A stretch of 60,550 bases of DNA from a virus, in the IMG/VR virus record IMGVR_UViG_3300042509_001483, positions 1-60,550 of that record. The stretch is one strand, 5' to 3'. How positions within the stretch are numbered: the first letter of the stretch is position 1; each line of letters begins with the position of its first letter. Below are positions 40,230-52,753 of the stretch, piece after piece. The notes under the pieces are model-generated. The model saw nothing but the letters and a program-made list of their open reading frames with translations. It was not told the DNA's origin and searched no databases. Both the position numbers and the translations under genes were made by a program.

Positions 40230-40391
40230 GTGACCATCAACCCCACCAAGCTGCTCTCTCGCGAAGAGGTTGGCGACAAGATCATGCTCGAGATCCTTGA
40301 TCTCCTTGAGCATGGTCATAGCCAGACTCTTGGAGCGCAGCACCTCCAGGTCATCAAGTCCTACGTGGACGAGATGCTGGAGAACAACTGA
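40230..40391 (+). CDS. Small early protein (53 aa)
   Basis: A GTG start with CGGAG eight bases upstream codes MTINPTKLLSREEVGDKIML then a helical segment to SYVDEMLENN. An upstream in-frame extension would run through the A element, so the GTG is preferred. Element B1 begins at its stop codon. Confidence 0.6.
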   Translation: MTINPTKLLSREEVGDKIMLEILDLLEHGHSQTLGAQHLQVIKSYVDEMLENN

Positions 40392-40392
40392 T

Positions 40393-40454
40393 CCGTTAAA
40401 GCGGGTGACCAGGTGCAAACCCTGGTCCAGTTATTGCCACCCATTGAAGGTGGC
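40393..40454 (+). ncRNA. Structured element B, copy 1
   Basis: Three hairpins: CCG-TTAAAG-CGG; GACCAGG-TGCAAAC-CCTGGTC; GCCACC-CATTGAA-GGTGGC, joined by CCAGTTAT. Loop sequence GCAA could also pair with TTGC downstream. Starts right after a TGA and ends 13 nt before the next ATG. The stems differ from copy 2 but stay paired. Confidence 0.7.
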
Positions 40455-40466
40455 TTATACAACACC

Positions 40467-40637
40467 ATGACTATTCAACAAGAGACAGTAAGCACTACGT
40501 ACGCAGAACTGCGTAAGTACTTTACTGAACAAGAGTTAGATGACGCTGCTGTTATTGCGCGTCATTTACAACACCATGAAGAACACTTGAACTATGCAGA
40601 GATCTACATCCAAGTCTTGCTTGAGATGAGAAGCTGA
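40467..40637 (+). CDS. Small early protein (56 aa)
   Basis: MTIQQETVSTTYAELRKYFT, acidic helical, ending IYIQVLLEMRS. The leader is TATACAACACC without Shine-Dalgarno. It lies between the two B elements, and the shared N-terminal pattern (MTI..) suggests a relation to the 53-residue gene. Confidence 0.6.
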   Translation: MTIQQETVSTTYAELRKYFTEQELDDAAVIARHLQHHEEHLNYAEIYIQVLLEMRS

Positions 40638-40638
40638 T

Positions 40639-40698
40639 CCGTCAAAGCGGGAGGCAGGGTGCAAACCCCTGCCCAGTTATTGCCACAACTCAGTGGCA
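40639..40698 (+). ncRNA. Structured element B, copy 2
   Basis: CCG-TCAAAG-CGG; GGCAGGG-TGCAAAC-CCCTGCC; TGCCAC-AACTCA-GTGGCA. Conserved with copy 1: the loop TGCAAAC and CCAGTTATTGCCAC. The middle stem has several compensatory changes compared with copy 1. Confidence 0.7.
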
Positions 40699-43703: not shown

Positions 43704-43747
43704 TCCCTGGGCAGCACCGACGTAAGTATGGTGTGTAAGTCCCAGGG
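43704..43747 (+). ncRNA. Structured element A, copy 4
   Basis: TCCCTGGGCAGCACCGACGT-hairpin-GTGTAAGTCCCAGGG. Almost identical to copy 5 at 45199 apart from compensating changes in the hairpin. Starts right after the TGA; the next ATG is 30 nt downstream. Confidence 0.75.
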
Positions 43748-43914: not shown

Positions 43915-44389
43915 GTACACACTGCGTCAAGCATGGGATGACGGTGACATCATTGTCATCCTGATCGCAATCATTTCAATCATCATCACAGAGTTTGCAT
44001 CATGTCTTACATCTCAGAACTCAAGAAGTTCTACCCCAAGTCCTACAAAGCACGCTTTGCAATCAATGCCTACAACGTGCACAAGTACTTTGAGCACAAA
44101 GACCCAACGGTCGTCACGGTCCACGAAACCTATCTCAGGTACGGCGGACCCGAAGAAGGGGGTTGGGATTGGATTCAAGGATACCCAATCCTTACCCATT
44201 GCATCTTCTCCAAGAAGCAAGCAATCCAAACCTACATCCACTACTTTGAAGAGTACGAAATCGAAGAGCAAGCAAGCCTCAGCATCTCAACAACGTTCTC
44301 AAACTATGACATCTGCTTTGGTAGTGACTACGCAAAGCTGTACCCTACAGAACGACCTCGATATTGCTGATGAACAAGCCATTGCCTAG
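43901..44389 (+). CDS. Small membrane protein, possibly with an overprinted C-terminus
   Basis: The ATG (MTKPKYTLRQAWDDGDIIV) leads into a transmembrane segment VILIAIISIIITEFA. Beyond residue ~35 the frame stays open for 120 more codons, coding a Ser/Thr/Lys-rich low-complexity tail from the DNA of the next gene. The membrane part is likely real; the tail may be an overprint. Confidence 0.4.
   Translation: MTKPKYTLRQAWDDGDIIVILIAIISIIITEFASCLTSQNSRSSTPSPTKHALQSMPTTCTSTLSTKTQRSSRSTKPISGTADPKKGVGIGFKDTQSLPIASSPRSKQSKPTSTTLKSTKSKSKQASASQQRSQTMTSALVVTTQSCTLQNDLDIADEQAIA
44002..44370 (+). CDS. Hypothetical early protein (122 aa)
   Basis: MSYISELKKFYPKSYKARFA then NAYNVHKYFEHKDPTVVTVH and an aromatic, acidic C-terminus. 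A normal, balanced composition supports it as the main product of this DNA. Its TGA overlaps the ATG of the HNH gene. Confidence 0.6.
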   Translation: MSYISELKKFYPKSYKARFAINAYNVHKYFEHKDPTVVTVHETYLRYGGPEEGGWDWIQGYPILTHCIFSKKQAIQTYIHYFEEYEIEEQASLSISTTFSNYDICFGSDYAKLYPTERPRYC

Positions 44390-44879
44390 CCAGCAAGAAC
44401 TACAAGCTTTGTTTGAATACAGCCCCACTACGGGGCTGTTTACTTACAAAGTCAAGCCTAATTTCAGAATCAAGATTGGTTCTATTGCTGGCACAGTCAA
44501 GAAGACTGGTAAGTGTAAAGGCTATTGCTTTATTAAAATCAATGGCCAATTGTATCAAGCAAGTCGTCTTGCTTGGCTGTATGTATATGGCATTGATCCA
44601 GGGTATTTAACTGTTGATCACATTGACAGAAATCCTTCGAACAATGCAATAAACAATTTAAGACTTGCAACAATGAGTGAACAATCGTTTAACCGCCACT
44701 CAACAAACAAGTTGGGTGTGCGTGGTGTTTACTACAGTGAAAGCAAAGATGTTTATATTGCTCATGTTAATTTCCGAAAAGCTGGTATATGTACTAGCAA
44801 ACAGTTTGCAACAATAGAAGAAGCATCTGAATGGTATGAAGATATGCGTAAACAATATGGTAAACAGTTTGCTTCCTGA
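44370..44879 (+). CDS. HNH homing endonuclease with AP2-like domain
   Basis: 169 residues. The catalytic module is ASRLAWLYVYGIDPGYLTVD then HIDRNPSNNAINNLRLATMS (H...N...N). Downstream VRGVYYSESKDVYIAHVNF and ICTSKQFATIEEASEWYEDM is the AP2/ERF-like DNA-binding domain seen in many phage HNH enzymes. It is translationally coupled to the previous gene by TGATG. A selfish insertion between two early genes. Confidence 0.9.
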   Translation: MNKPLPSQQELQALFEYSPTTGLFTYKVKPNFRIKIGSIAGTVKKTGKCKGYCFIKINGQLYQASRLAWLYVYGIDPGYLTVDHIDRNPSNNAINNLRLATMSEQSFNRHSTNKLGVRGVYYSESKDVYIAHVNFRKAGICTSKQFATIEEASEWYEDMRKQYGKQFAS

Positions 44880-45198: not shown

Positions 45199-45240
45199 TC
45201 CTGGGCAGCACCGACGTAAGTACAGTGCGTAAGTCCCAGG
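45199..45240 (+). ncRNA. Structured element A, copy 5
   Basis: TCCTGGGCAGCACCGACGT-hairpin-GCGTAAGTCCCAGG. Compared with copy 4 the hairpin arm TATGGTG has become TACAGTG while the 5' arm is unchanged. The next ATG is 19 nt downstream. Confidence 0.75.
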
Positions 45241-45258: not shown

Positions 45259-45891
45259 ATGACACAAGTAACAGGCTCAACACGTGCAGCACAAGGTGGT
45301 AAATCTATTTACTGCCCGCATTGCAACAATCGGACAACTGTTTATCACTTCCAGTGGACAGCGCTTCAGTGCAATCACTGTGAAGCAATGGTAAACAAAC
45401 ACGACTGGTATCTTCAACCCGACTTCACATCAACCATGGAACAAACCAAGCAAACTCCAATTGAAAAGCTCAAGCTTTCCACTGGTATTCACAATATACT
45501 CAAGCGCCATCGTCTTGATTATATTGAACAGATCGTGGACATGAAGATGGAAGACTTTATGTCACTGAATCGATGTGGACAAGCTAAAGCTCAAGAAGTT
45601 ATCCTTGCTCTTTCCAAATTCACTACTCAACACATCATGGCTCAAAACGAATACTCCAAACTGCAAGAAGTGGTAGATCTCCTTAAGGCAATCCAAGAAC
45701 GTGAGAGTAAGCGTCATCAAATGGACGAGCACCTCGATCCGCATACAGCAGATGTTGTGCTAGAGGTGATCGGCATGCTTGAAGACGAGATCGACTATGA
45801 TCCAACACCTAACGAACCTGGTGAACCACCTATGACAATGAATGAAATGCACAGTGCTGCATGGAAAGAACACCATGAGATGCATCGGTAA
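45259..45891 (+). CDS. Zinc ribbon plus RNA polymerase alpha-CTD-like protein
   Basis: 210 residues. Residues 16-50 form a zinc ribbon (IYCPHCNNRTTVYHFQW, CNHCEAM). Residues ~66-115 resemble the alpha subunit C-terminal domain: TPIEKLKLSTGIHNILKRH then YIEQIVDMKMEDFMSLNRCG and QAKAQEVILALS, the helix-hairpin-helix that in RNA polymerase contacts UP elements and activators. The rest is acidic and helical. A natural hypothesis is that it redirects host transcription during early infection. Not verified by alignment tools. Confidence 0.65.
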   Translation: MTQVTGSTRAAQGGKSIYCPHCNNRTTVYHFQWTALQCNHCEAMVNKHDWYLQPDFTSTMEQTKQTPIEKLKLSTGIHNILKRHRLDYIEQIVDMKMEDFMSLNRCGQAKAQEVILALSKFTTQHIMAQNEYSKLQEVVDLLKAIQERESKRHQMDEHLDPHTADVVLEVIGMLEDEIDYDPTPNEPGEPPMTMNEMHSAAWKEHHEMHR

Positions 45892-46454: not shown

Positions 46455-46485
46455 TCCTGGGCATCCTTACGGTGTAAGTCCCAGG
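46455..46485 (+). ncRNA. Structured element A, copy 6
   Basis: TCCTGGGCATCC-TTAC-GGTGTAAGTCCCAGG: the shortest member of the family, with a minimal inner hairpin. Next ATG 27 nt downstream. Confidence 0.7.
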
Positions 46486-47212: not shown

Positions 47213-48949
47213 ATGAAATTCGCTCTGCCTTCTAACCTTCAGACTGAACTCTTGGCTTATGACCCAAAGCTTAAGGCTTTGGCTAAGCAAGCTAACAAAC
47301 CAGCAGCCAAGAAACCTACGTATCCACTTGGCAAGATTCCTTGTTTGATACCAACGCACATTGTGCGTGAAACTGATCAGCAAGATGCAATTGCTCAGAT
47401 CAATCAGCGTCCAGCACCACAGCGTTATCAAGTCTTTACCAGGCCTGTAGATGTGGCAACACCACAGGCTAGGCTCAAGGTCATTGCCATCTTGTATCAC
47501 TACGAACAGGTGTGGTACGCGGCATGGTTACCTTCCAAGCAAGAGAAAGATCAATATGTGTATGGCCATGCTTACGCATTCAAGAACACATCAACTACAC
47601 AGAAGATTGCACCAACTTGGATATGGAATAGCAAAGATGATTGCGTTGTTCACGACATTGGGCGTGGCTCGCAACTTTTTGTCTACACCAATACAGCAAC
47701 CATAGAAGATATCCGTGGGAAAGATTACGATAGCTGGCGCAGTTACCCATGGCGAGCAGGTAACCTTTACTGCCAAAAGGGTTATACAATTCGTGATAAT
47801 GTTGTCAATGAATTTGATAACAGCCTGAGGGAAGATCTCCCAACATGGGAGGATTCACGTGGATTGTTTGATCGTATACGTTGCAAGAATATCTTTGATG
47901 CAGCAAACATACCATCAATGATGTCAAAGCATCTTGATGAACGTCAAGGCTTGACTGTTGATAACTTCATTGCTGCTTCACTTGCATTCAAAGAAGAACA
48001 TGGTTATAGCTCCATGACATACTCCGTTGTCACAAAAATCCAACACATTGTTACTAAGCCTACCATCAAGAAACTATTGCAAGCAGAGTTAAACCGTAGC
48101 GTTGATGCATACAATGATCCTAATAACAAACAACAGCAACCTATTAAGCAAGGCTTTGCAACCTTTGTTCAAATCATTAATTCAATTGAATGGATCAATA
48201 ACATTTGGCCAGACTGCCCTATTGATTACTATCAGACTTACTTCAAGGAGCTTAAGTATCTTCGCTTGACTGAAGTGCGTATAGGTAGTTCAGTTATACA
48301 AGATACAAACTTAATCAACTGGCTGCGTGAACACATGCCCATTGCATCGTTGTTTACAATCATGCGTAAGTACTTGGATAGACAACTCACTGAATACAAT
48401 GGCCGTTGGGTTGATAACGAGGTTGGCTACCAGCGTCAACGCTTTGGTGAACTCAACGATACATTCTCCATGATGCTTAAGATCCTGCATGTTGGTAATA
48501 CACTGGAGCCACCGAAGCGTTGGCGTTTGACTGAGTTCCATGACTACGTACAATCCGAAGCATGGAAGATTGAGAATCCAAAGGAATCTCTACGGCAAGA
48601 TCTATTCCCTGAACCTATTAAAGTTACACGTCTTGATAAAGTATGGACATTCTTCCAGCCTCATGACACACATCAACTATCCATGTGGGGTCAAGCCGTA
48701 CGTAATTGCGTTGGCTCTGCATCCCACTATGCCGATGACATCAAGAAACGTAAGCACTTCATTGTGTTATGTATGATTGATAACAAACCCACCTTCACAA
48801 TTCAATTGGTTGTGGACCAGGGTATGATGTCGGTTAAGCAGATTGCTGGCGTTGGCAATCGGAGTCTTGACGCATGGGAGCGCGATGCTTACACGGAAGC
48901 TTTCCGTGAGGTCTTGCAGCAACGCGAGAAGCAGCTAGCATGTAGCTGA
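47213..48949 (+). CDS. PcfJ-like protein
   Basis: 578 residues starting MKFALPSNLQTELLAYDPKL. The C-terminal ~120 residues match the PcfJ-type pattern: MWGQAVRNCVGSASHYADDI, then FIVLCMIDNKPTFTIQLVV and VKQIAGVGNRSLDAWERDA. PcfJ-like proteins are found in plasmids and phages, and their activity is poorly known. The N-terminal two thirds are helical without a family I recognise. The gene carries a C pseudoknot leader and a CTACACCACACC leader, and is followed by a strong terminator. Confidence 0.65.
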   Translation: MKFALPSNLQTELLAYDPKLKALAKQANKPAAKKPTYPLGKIPCLIPTHIVRETDQQDAIAQINQRPAPQRYQVFTRPVDVATPQARLKVIAILYHYEQVWYAAWLPSKQEKDQYVYGHAYAFKNTSTTQKIAPTWIWNSKDDCVVHDIGRGSQLFVYTNTATIEDIRGKDYDSWRSYPWRAGNLYCQKGYTIRDNVVNEFDNSLREDLPTWEDSRGLFDRIRCKNIFDAANIPSMMSKHLDERQGLTVDNFIAASLAFKEEHGYSSMTYSVVTKIQHIVTKPTIKKLLQAELNRSVDAYNDPNNKQQQPIKQGFATFVQIINSIEWINNIWPDCPIDYYQTYFKELKYLRLTEVRIGSSVIQDTNLINWLREHMPIASLFTIMRKYLDRQLTEYNGRWVDNEVGYQRQRFGELNDTFSMMLKILHVGNTLEPPKRWRLTEFHDYVQSEAWKIENPKESLRQDLFPEPIKVTRLDKVWTFFQPHDTHQLSMWGQAVRNCVGSASHYADDIKKRKHFIVLCMIDNKPTFTIQLVVDQGMMSVKQIAGVGNRSLDAWERDAYTEAFREVLQQREKQLACS

Positions 48950-49729: not shown

Positions 49730-50050
49730 ATGACACACGACTCCATTGATCTTGACCTTGTTGACAAGACCATTGCGTTAATACCAAAGCAAGCTTGGAC
49801 TCAAGTGAGACAAGCAATTGTTACAGCCTTGGTTGATAACATGCCTGGCTCTGTGATCCAACATCTGACTGGTTCTTATGATGACTTTGATCGTGCAGAA
49901 GAAATTCTGTACGATTACTACGAACTTCCTGCACTGTCGCATGAACTAATTGCAGATGCATTCAAGATCATGGGCGAAGTCAATTGTCTTGAACTCCTTC
50001 ATTCATTGAACCTCACTGAAGATGAATTGCAGACAATGCAACAGCAGTAA
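49730..50050 (+). CDS. Hypothetical early protein (106 aa)
   Basis: MTHDSIDLDLVDKTIALIPK then NMPGSVIQHLTGSYDDFDRA, acidic and helical. The last 29 bp overlap the zinc-ribbon gene that follows. Confidence 0.6.
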   Translation: MTHDSIDLDLVDKTIALIPKQAWTQVRQAIVTALVDNMPGSVIQHLTGSYDDFDRAEEILYDYYELPALSHELIADAFKIMGEVNCLELLHSLNLTEDELQTMQQQ

Positions 50051-50357
50051 CACACGCGTTACTTGTACTGAACATCTAGGGCCTGATGTAACCAAGCGTT
50101 ATTGTCGTTGTCTTGATTGTGGTTGCAAGTATCGCACTGTTGAACGGTACGAAGTTGCTAAGCCAATTCCATTAAAAGTCTACAAACCTGTTGGCACTAG
50201 GAATGGAAACTCTTTTTTGACTGACAATGATGTGTTGATGATTCGTCATCTACATCAAAAGGGATTGAGCAATGGTCAGATAGCGATACGCTATGACACT
50301 GCTCGCAGTACAATCTCACGTATTGTCAACTACAAAACTTACACCAACATCAAATGA
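50022..50357 (+). CDS. NrdR-like zinc ribbon fused to helix-turn-helix
   Basis: 111 residues. The N-terminus has MNCRQCNSSNTRVTCTEH and RYCRCLDCGCKYRTVERYE, the CxxC...CxxCG.(Y/F)RT.E pattern of NrdR zinc ribbons, but no ATP-cone follows. Instead a homeodomain-like HTH appears: FLTDNDVLMIRHLHQKGLSN then IAIRYDTARSTISRIVNYKT. A probable DNA-binding regulator. The HTH resembles that of the 43.0 kb gene. Confidence 0.7.
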   Translation: MNCRQCNSSNTRVTCTEHLGPDVTKRYCRCLDCGCKYRTVERYEVAKPIPLKVYKPVGTRNGNSFLTDNDVLMIRHLHQKGLSNGQIAIRYDTARSTISRIVNYKTYTNIK

Positions 50358-51036: not shown

Positions 51037-51239
51037 AAAGCAGGGAGGTTACTGAACTACTTGTTGTCAGTGCTGTGTCTTGCCTAATTGCTTTTGTGTT
51101 TGTTGTGTTGCTTTCTTATGGTGGAAATTCTTCTCCACCTAAAGAACGCTTTGCCATTGTTGATCAGTACCAAGGCTGTGATGTCGTACGGTACACTGAT
51201 CCTTCTAGTCGGTACCACTATCTATTGAAGTGCTCATGA
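51033..51239 (+). CDS. Small membrane protein (68 aa)
   Basis: One transmembrane helix (LLVVSAVSCLIAFVFVVLLS) followed by a soluble domain of ~40 residues with two Cys. Overlaps ThyX by ATGA. Unknown function; similar layout to the protein at 41.5 kb. Confidence 0.6.
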   Translation: MKSREVTELLVVSAVSCLIAFVFVVLLSYGGNSSPPKERFAIVDQYQGCDVVRYTDPSSRYHYLLKCS

Positions 51240-52753
51240 GTAATGCCAATCTTGTTTGGGTAACGCCCAATGCAGAAGAGATGATTGTCAAGATGGCACG
51301 CGTCTCTGCACCCAAGAATCAAGACAACATGGATACCGCACCCAATTTGTTGCGTTATCTGATTAAACATCAGCACTGGTCACCGTACGAAATGGCCAAC
51401 ATGTGTGTTGAAATCAACACAACACGTGCAATCTCACCGCAGATCCTTAGGCATCGGTCCTTCTCGTTCCAGGAATTTTGTTTAGCTGGCAATGTGCGTA
51501 TCACTATCTCAACCGAATCAGGAGTAGTTCAACGCTTGCCTATTGAAGAGTTGTATTCTAAATGGAATAAAAGCTCTTTCCGGGCAAGGTATGCACGTTC
51601 TTATGATCCAGAAGCGGAGCGTTTTATTTCAGCTCCCATACTTTCTGTTTATCAGTCAGGAGAAAAACCTATTTATCAGTACACTATAGAAGCGCCGGAT
51701 TCATACAAAACAATTGACTGTACTCAAGAGCATCGTATTTTCACAAAGGAAAAAGGATTTGTAGCTTTTAAAGAAGCTTATGAACAAGGTTTATCAGTTG
51801 CTTTAAATGGAAAAGAAACTTTTCCTTTGCCTTATCAAAATCCCGATGTTTTAAAAGAGAACGCTTGGATGGGTTCAACAGCTTTTGCTGAAGCGTATGG
51901 AATTAAAGATGTGACTGCACGTAAATGGTTTCGTAAACATGGCATTGTCCCTGCTAAACCAAACAATGCAGCCTCTAGTAGGATTGACATTTCATTTGAA
52001 GCAAAGAAATCTTCATTCATGAAATGGGCAAGATCTACAATGCTTCAGCAAAGCTGTGAGTGTTGTGGGCATGATGGTTCTGTATCGCGTCTTGAATTAA
52101 GCCATATTACTGCACACGATAATAACGAAGAATTATGTTTTGATGAAACTAATTTGCAAACATTATGTGCATCATGCCATCGCAAGTATGACATTGCCAT
52201 ACAAGGCAAACAGTATGGATGGACTTTAGGGATGACTGCTAAATGGGGAAAAATTACAGAAGAAAAATATTTAGGTATTCAAATGACGTACGATATTGAA
52301 ATGGACCATCCAACTCATAACTTTGTTGCCAATGGAATTGTTGTTCATAACAGTCAACGTTACGCAGACACCAGTGAACTTGGCTCAGCTATTATTCCTC
52401 ATCTGCGTCGACAAGACTTTAAGAATCGTCAAAACAGTATTGATGATTTGTCTGCTGATGCAATCAGTGGTTATTACCGTCGCATTAGCAAGTTGTATGA
52501 AGACGCTGAACATCTCTACCGTGAGATGGTTAGCAGCGGCGTTGCAAAAGAATGTGCCAGGTCTATCCTGCCACTTTCAACACAGACCCGTCTCTTTATG
52601 AACGGCACCATCAGATCTTGGATCCATTATCTACAACTGCGGACACATGAATCAACCCAACTTGAACACAGAGAAATTGCAGAAGCAATCAAAGGAATCT
52701 TCTGCAAAGAATTCCCAATCATCGGAGAGGCTGTGTTCTCAACAGATCAATGA
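51236..52753 (+). CDS. thyX: Flavin-dependent thymidylate synthase ThyX containing an intein
   Basis: The precursor has 505 residues. The exteins give ThyX (~214 residues): residues 1-81 (MSNANLVWVTPNAEEMIVK) end in RHRSFSFQEF, and the downstream extein continues SQRYADTSELGSA, restoring the ThyX motif RHRx7S. ThyX makes dTMP from dUMP with FAD and folate, fed here by dCTP deaminase. The C-extein has RRISKLYEDAEHLYREMVSS and RSWIHYLQLRTH. The intein starts with Cys and ends HN|S. Translation starts in an ATGA overlap. Confidence 0.95.
   Translation: MSNANLVWVTPNAEEMIVKMARVSAPKNQDNMDTAPNLLRYLIKHQHWSPYEMANMCVEINTTRAISPQILRHRSFSFQEFCLAGNVRITISTESGVVQRLPIEELYSKWNKSSFRARYARSYDPEAERFISAPILSVYQSGEKPIYQYTIEAPDSYKTIDCTQEHRIFTKEKGFVAFKEAYEQGLSVALNGKETFPLPYQNPDVLKENAWMGSTAFAEAYGIKDVTARKWFRKHGIVPAKPNNAASSRIDISFEAKKSSFMKWARSTMLQQSCECCGHDGSVSRLELSHITAHDNNEELCFDETNLQTLCASCHRKYDIAIQGKQYGWTLGMTAKWGKITEEKYLGIQMTYDIEMDHPTHNFVANGIVVHNSQRYADTSELGSAIIPHLRRQDFKNRQNSIDDLSADAISGYYRRISKLYEDAEHLYREMVSSGVAKECARSILPLSTQTRLFMNGTIRSWIHYLQLRTHESTQLEHREIAEAIKGIFCKEFPIIGEAVFSTDQ
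51479..52351 (+). mobile_element. Intein with HNH endonuclease domain in ThyX
   Basis: 291 residues beginning CLAGNVRITIS (block A) and ending GIVVHN before Ser (block G). Block B is TIDCTQEHRIFT. Near the middle there is an HNH zinc module: SCECCGHDGSVSRLELSHIT and TLCASCHRKYDI, rather than LAGLIDADG. It also has an AEAYGIKDVTARKWFRKHGI helix-turn-helix for target recognition. It inserts between Phe and the invariant catalytic-motif Ser. Confidence 0.92.

What the first reader, a model, noticed from the sequence alone, without database searches (positions are those of the whole stretch)
45259..45891. Protein joining a zinc ribbon to an RNA polymerase alpha-CTD-like domain
TPIEKLKLSTGIHNILKRH ... 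SLNRCGQAKAQEVI strongly resembles the helix-hairpin-helix of the RNA polymerase alpha subunit C-terminal domain. A small early phage protein that mimics this domain could compete with it at promoters or recruit the host polymerase. Phage proteins with such an architecture are not common to my knowledge.
Basis: partly seen in the sequence, partly recalled or inferred. Interest (0 to 1): 0.75.

Follow-up and report, generated by a model that had tools for sequence, protein, structure and literature searches.

The report
Cyanophage protein with borrowed polymerase domain
A freshwater cyanophage carries a three-part small protein whose middle part is a copy of the host RNA polymerase's alpha-subunit tip, slotted into a common phage gene; the copy has lost key residues with which that tip grips DNA, so it was probably put to another use.

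Summary
The 210-aa ORF at 45259-45891 is real and has three modules: a C4 zinc ribbon (cyanophage family phrog_5602), an RNA polymerase alpha-CTD domain, and an acidic C-terminal module. The middle domain is a genuine alpha-CTD, not a generic HhH: it passes the PF03118 cut-off, its best sequence and fold matches are cyanobacterial RpoA, and a tree places it inside cyanobacterial RpoA. The phage is related to Synechococcus phage S-EIV1. Most relatives encode only the C-terminal module as a 91-95 aa gene; two have ribbon plus module; only this record has the alpha-CTD. At the DNA level it is a 195-nt in-frame insertion just after the ancestral start codon. R265, present in all 79 other alpha-CTDs compared, is Gly here; N294, K298 and S299 are also replaced, and D259/E261 became Lys. 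Competing with the host at UP elements by normal DNA binding is therefore unlikely. I favour a captured alpha-CTD fold reused as an adaptor or decoy acting on host transcription (0.4), with non-specific nucleic-acid binding close behind. Alpha-CTDs in phage proteins are not rare (33 IMG/VR loci), so this is a new variant of a known kind, seen in one record only.

The parts
45259..45891 (+). Three-module ORF, 210 aa
   Evidence: one open frame; modules
45259..45417 (+). Zinc ribbon (CPHC...CNHC), aa 1-53, cyanophage family phrog_5602
   Evidence: E 6e-8; 54% identity to free-standing S-SM2 SSM2_073 and Bellamy gp92
45418..45450 (+). Former 5' leader and start codon of the stand-alone gene (FTST-MEQTK); internal ATG at 45436 with CA-rich context
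   Evidence: 45414-45450 is 89% identical to the leader and start of L007, whose gene starts at this ATG
45451..45645 (+). Inserted alpha-CTD segment (195 nt), absent from all examined relatives
   Evidence: PF03118; 0 of 23 related records; DNA junctions against L001, L002, L003, L007
45646..45888 (+). Conserved acidic C-terminal module, aa 130-210; free-standing 91-95 aa gene in most close relatives, 94 aa AHV82193.1 in S-EIV1
45200..45240 (+). Repeated intergenic inverted-repeat element CCTGGG...CCCAGG just upstream; the ribbon segment begins right after it
44364..44879 (+). Neighbouring HNH homing-type endonuclease, absent at this place in L001, L003 and L007

Best explanation
Shown: the middle domain is an alpha-CTD, most probably captured from a cyanobacterial rpoA, and inserted in frame between the first codons and the body of a small gene typical of S-EIV1-like cyanophages, downstream of a zinc ribbon. 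It keeps conserved core positions (L262, N268, L270, K271, G296, E302) and a confident alpha-CTD fold, but has lost most of the DNA-contact surface (R265G, N294R, K298A, S299K) and the acidic sigma-facing positions (D259K, E261K). Inferred: it no longer works as a UP-element reader. It most likely works as a protein-contact module, an adaptor or decoy that offers an alpha-CTD-like surface to host transcription factors or polymerase, with the zinc ribbon and the acidic module supplying the other contacts, so that host transcription is redirected or damped. The phage seems to rely on host polymerase: no multi-subunit RNAP beta or sigma region 4 gene was found. Also inferred: the retained ATGs at 45436 and 45637 may allow shorter products.
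For: PF03118 above cut-off. Best PDB sequence matches are cyanobacterial RNAP alpha, 8syi E 2e-6 and 8gzg 7e-6, against 1e-3 or worse for other phyla. A cyanobacterial RpoA profile scores 41 bits, a viral alpha-CTD profile 37, picocyanobacteria alone 30. The tree puts it inside cyanobacterial RpoA, 100/99. The AlphaFold model of the domain has pLDDT 90 and its best fold matches are the Synechococcus 7942 alpha-CTD bound by RpaA, 9dvu/9dvt, E 3e-4. Residue table. Insertion junctions. Host-order genomes carry essentially only RpoA as an alpha-CTD protein (120 of 120; extra over-cut-off matches in two genomes). No beta-subunit or sigma-r4 match in five related records. R265 and N268 are the documented key DNA-binding residues (PMC11434276).
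Against: No binding or expression data. Only one sequence has the domain, so selection on it cannot be measured. The acidic faces used by sigma and some activators are also changed (259, 261, 273), so the activator-facing surface may be lost as well. The source is nearer to non-pico cyanobacteria than to the presumed picocyanobacterial host, which weakens the idea of host mimicry. The branch is very long (7.0), so the placement is unsure in detail. In the full-length model the domain is not confidently folded (pLDDT under 50 over most of aa 52-90), because the alignment there held one sequence.
Confidence: 0.4

Rival explanations
1. The captured alpha-CTD has become a general HhH nucleic-acid-binding module: with the zinc ribbon it binds phage or host DNA or RNA without sequence preference, and no link to polymerase remains.
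For: Net charge of the domain is +2 against a mean of -3.3 in cyanobacterial alpha-CTDs. The second hairpin keeps G296, N268 and E302 and gains R294 and K299, which could contact phosphates. By fold alone Rad51-type HhH domains score as high as alpha-CTDs (Z about 10).
Against: By sequence it is specifically RpoA-derived. R265 and K298, main DNA contacts of this very fold, are gone. Other viral alpha-CTDs are also near neutral or basic (mean +0.6, range to +4), so the charge is not special.
Confidence: 0.33
2. One reading: the protein mimics alpha-CTD in the usual way, competing with it for UP elements or recruiting polymerase through DNA.
For: Clear alpha-CTD homology and fold; N268, G296 and E302 kept.
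Against: R265G, N294R, K298A, S299K; R265 is Arg in 48 of 48 cyanobacterial and 31 of 31 viral alpha-CTDs. [quoted passage not shown] coli (PMC11434276).
Confidence: 0.12
3. The insertion is a recent or tolerated passenger in an accessory gene and is drifting without function.
For: Found in one record only; conserved functional residues lost; long branch; neighbouring genes also vary by insertion.
Against: The frame is open through the whole insert; structural positions are kept while surface positions changed; at about 40% identity to its source it has remained foldable.
Confidence: 0.15

Closest known systems
C-terminal domain of cyanobacterial RNA polymerase alpha subunit (PF03118; PDB 9dvt, 9dvu, 8syi)
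   Same: Fold, length, core residues, about 40% identity; nested with cyanobacterial RpoA in the tree
   Different: No alpha N-terminal domain; DNA-contact residues 265, 294, 298, 299 and acidic residues 259, 261 replaced; sits between a zinc ribbon and an acidic module
Phage sigma region 4 plus alpha-CTD fusion proteins (e.g. IMG/VR loci L042, L048, L051)
   Same: Small phage-encoded protein bearing an alpha-CTD next to another transcription-type domain
   Different: Those carry sigma region 4 and keep R265; none has the acidic module
Bacillus phage Goe8 Goe8_c00050 ('RNA polymerase subunit alpha'), Ruegeria phage V16 gp23
   Same: Alpha-CTD at one end of a small accessory phage protein
   Different: Other partner regions; canonical R265; unrelated hosts
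Free-standing zinc ribbons of cyanomyoviruses (phrog_5602; S-SM2 SSM2_073, Bellamy gp92)
   Same: 54% identical zinc ribbon
   Different: Single-domain proteins of about 50 aa
S-EIV1 AHV82193.1 and the 91-95 aa genes of related IMG/VR phages
   Same: C-terminal module and gene neighbourhood
   Different: No zinc ribbon and no alpha-CTD

Membership tests
RNA_pol_A_CTD (PF03118) | Profile score above the curated cut-off over the whole domain | tested here: met
   30.1-32.3 bits against 23.8, profile 7-66 of 67
RNA_pol_A_CTD (PF03118) | Alpha-CTD fold | tested here: met
   Model pLDDT 90; best Foldseek hits 9dvu/9dvt; VIA-align Z 10.0, rmsd 1.8 over 60 residues; Rad51-type HhH domains tie on Z
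RNA_pol_A_CTD (PF03118) | 265 determinant for minor-groove DNA binding (R265, N268, N294, G296, K298, S299, E302) | tested here: not met
   Only N268, G296 and E302 kept; G265, R294, A298, K299
RNA_pol_A_CTD (PF03118) | Attached to an alpha-NTD that assembles into RNA polymerase | tested here: not met
   No alpha-NTD in the 210 aa
Generic HhH DNA-repair domain | Better match to an HhH family than to alpha-CTD | tested here: not met
   No HhH family in the Pfam list at E<=10; NCBIfam's best are rpoA models
Cyanophage zinc ribbon phrog_5602 | Profile match and two CxxC pairs | tested here: met
   E 6e-8, CPHC and CNHC
Cyanophage zinc ribbon phrog_5602 | Binds zinc | not testable with these tools
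   Only the cysteine pattern was seen
Phage sigma region 4 plus alpha-CTD fusions | Sigma-70 region 4 domain (PF04545) next to the alpha-CTD | tested here: not met
   No Sigma70_r4 in the protein or the record
Phage inhibitor or hijacker of host RNA polymerase | Binds host RNAP or a regulator and changes transcription | not testable with these tools
   Needs pull-down and transcription assays

The most novel reading that the evidence does not exclude
A lytic cyanophage captured the host RNA polymerase alpha-CTD, removed its DNA grip and mounted it on a zinc ribbon and an acidic phage module, making a decoy that soaks up alpha-CTD-dependent activators such as the circadian regulator RpaA, and so shuts down or redirects host gene programmes.
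Probability: 0.15. Interest if true: 0.75.

Novelty: new variant of a known kind. Interest (0 to 1): 0.45.

Why it matters
Alpha-CTD is a main docking point for bacterial activators. A phage-borne copy that keeps the fold but has lost the DNA-contact residues would be a natural separation-of-function variant and a way to ask which alpha-CTD contacts matter in cyanobacteria, where RpaA engages this domain (PDB 9dvt). The junctions also show how small phage proteins are built by in-frame addition of domains around a retained ancestral start codon.

Tried and rejected
A viral-contig search with the alpha-CTD segment alone found no relative, nor did one with a cyanobacteria-weighted alignment; PF03118 was absent from 23 related records. 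A combined alignment of fragments from all three modules was unusable, so the structure was predicted in two jobs. The full-length model gave no confident PDB match for the zinc ribbon or the C-terminal module, and its viral matches are weak apart from a few zinc-ribbon-sized proteins such as that of S-SM2. The C-terminal module matched no Pfam family; Cas_Csn2 at E 0.1 was dismissed as chance. Human-fecal and 'Kay'-type records with alpha-CTD hits were not used as examples of phage proteins: the one I examined, MT835508, encodes a full-length bacterial-type RpoA. The PF00940 (T7-type RNAP) search is uninformative because its controls did not ring. Literature searches found no paper on phage alpha-CTD proteins with zinc ribbons. 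Conservation of R265 among the cyanobacterial set is partly ascertained, because one search pattern held VRAYNCLK; the viral set was searched with [RG] at that place.

Full report
Observation. The ORF at 45259-45891 (+) encodes 210 aa. Pfam finds RNA_pol_A_CTD at aa 60-119 with 30.1 bits against a cut-off of 23.8; a six-frame search gives 32.3 bits and no other alpha-CTD in the record. The N-terminus is a C4 zinc ribbon of phrog_5602, 54% identical to free-standing proteins of Synechococcus phages S-SM2 and Bellamy. The rest, aa 130-210, matches no Pfam family but is highly conserved in related phages.

Setting. The window is an IMG/VR virus record of 60,550 bases. It is related to Synechococcus phage S-EIV1. 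The + strand from about 40 kb holds many small genes, then thymidylate synthase, DNA polymerase A and SSB. No RNAP beta-subunit and no sigma region 4 were found in this record or four relatives, with working controls. Reliance on host polymerase is therefore likely, although the record may be incomplete and a single-subunit polymerase was not properly excluded.

Architecture in relatives. 35 related loci were found. Most encode only the C-terminal module, 91-95 aa in the close relatives and 69-89 aa in the more distant ones. L001 and L002 encode zinc ribbon plus module, 156 and 152 aa. None has the alpha-CTD: PF03118 is absent from 23 related records searched whole, S-EIV1 included. The DNA comparison shows the steps. 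Against L007, identity is 92.6% up to 45246; the ribbon segment 45247-45413 is missing in L007; 45414-45450 (leader, ATG, MEQTK) is 89% identical; then homology stops. Against L003 it resumes at 45646. Thus a zinc ribbon was joined in frame to the old 5' leader, and a 195-nt alpha-CTD segment sits just after the old start codon. The order of the two events is inferred from the ribbon-plus-module forms. The old ATG (45436) keeps the CA-rich leader seen before several genes here, so internal initiation is possible (inference).

Origin of the alpha-CTD. The best PDB sequence hits are cyanobacterial RNAP alpha subunits. Profiles score 41.1 bits (cyanobacteria), 36.9 (viral alpha-CTDs) and 30.4 (picocyanobacteria only). 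A 56-row tree places it within cyanobacterial RpoA (100/99), outside the picocyanobacterial clade, on a branch of length 7; only 71 columns were usable and few other phyla were sampled. In 120 genomes of the picocyanobacterial order every genome has one strong match, in frames of RpoA-like length; only two genomes show extra matches over the cut-off, in large ORFs, and about twenty others have weaker hits near 20 bits, mostly in ORFs of about 652 aa. The domain model has pLDDT 90, and Foldseek ranks Synechococcus 7942 alpha-CTD first. On structural Z alone Rad51-type HhH domains tie, so the specific assignment rests on sequence.

What it has lost. In E. coli numbering, R265 is Arg in 48 of 48 cyanobacterial and 31 of 31 viral alpha-CTDs and Gly here; N294 is Arg, K298 Ala, S299 Lys, C269 Ile; D259 and E261 are Lys. 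N268, G296, E302, L262, L270 and K271 are kept. R265 and N268 are documented as critical for DNA binding (PMC11434276); the roles of 294, 298 and 299, and of 259 and 261 towards sigma, are from general knowledge of the CAP-alpha-CTD-DNA and sigma-alpha-CTD structures. The domain is therefore an alpha-CTD by descent and fold but fails the DNA-binding test of that family.

How common this is. A scan with an alpha-CTD alignment found 33 IMG/VR loci. They include sigma region 4 plus alpha-CTD proteins (confirmed by Pfam for three), near stand-alone domains, and two with Cys clusters before the domain (L059, L070). Annotated phages with such proteins include Bacillus phage Goe8 and Ruegeria phage V16. 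Phage alpha-CTD proteins are therefore a known kind in the data, although I found no paper that treats them.

Mechanism. I favour an adaptor or decoy acting on host transcription through protein contacts (0.4). A non-specific nucleic-acid-binding HhH module is close behind (0.33), passenger drift is possible (0.15), and classical UP-element competition is unlikely (0.12). Shown: modules, homology, insertion, residue losses. Inferred: partners, effect on transcription, internal starts.

Noticed in passing
window 43706-43746, 45200-45240, 46456-46485; L036 5245 and 5936: Repeated intergenic element with inverted repeat CCTGGG...GTAAGTCCCAGG (0 expected in shuffles) followed by a CA-rich leader before small genes; also in S-EIV1 and the close relatives L001-L018, always on the gene strand. 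The zinc-ribbon segment starts directly after one copy, so it may be a cassette boundary. Its RNA fold is not more stable than shuffles (z -0.5).
   Followed up: partly
window 40388-40440 and 40634-40686: A second repeated element (53 nt, 85% identical) with CAGG...CCTG-type inverted repeats before small ORFs.
   Followed up: no
window 51230-52753: FAD-dependent thymidylate synthase (Thy1) interrupted by an intein-like segment with an HNH endonuclease.
   Followed up: no
window 44364-44879: HNH endonuclease with a weak AP2 match, next to the ORF and missing at this place in L001, L003 and L007.
   Followed up: partly
window 47213-48949: PcfJ-like protein of 578 aa (PF14284, just above cut-off) in the small-gene region.
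   Followed up: no
L155 (G130:C3:76-480) and L156 (G050:C1:354535-354717): Very large ORFs in genomes of the picocyanobacterial order with divergent alpha-CTD-like domains; both show sigma-region-4-like motifs by eye and L156 a helicase-like C-terminus; possibly mobile-island or defence proteins.
   Followed up: partly
window 50022-50357: Small protein with a C4 zinc-ribbon-like N-terminus and a resolvase-type HTH (phrog_20467).
   Followed up: no
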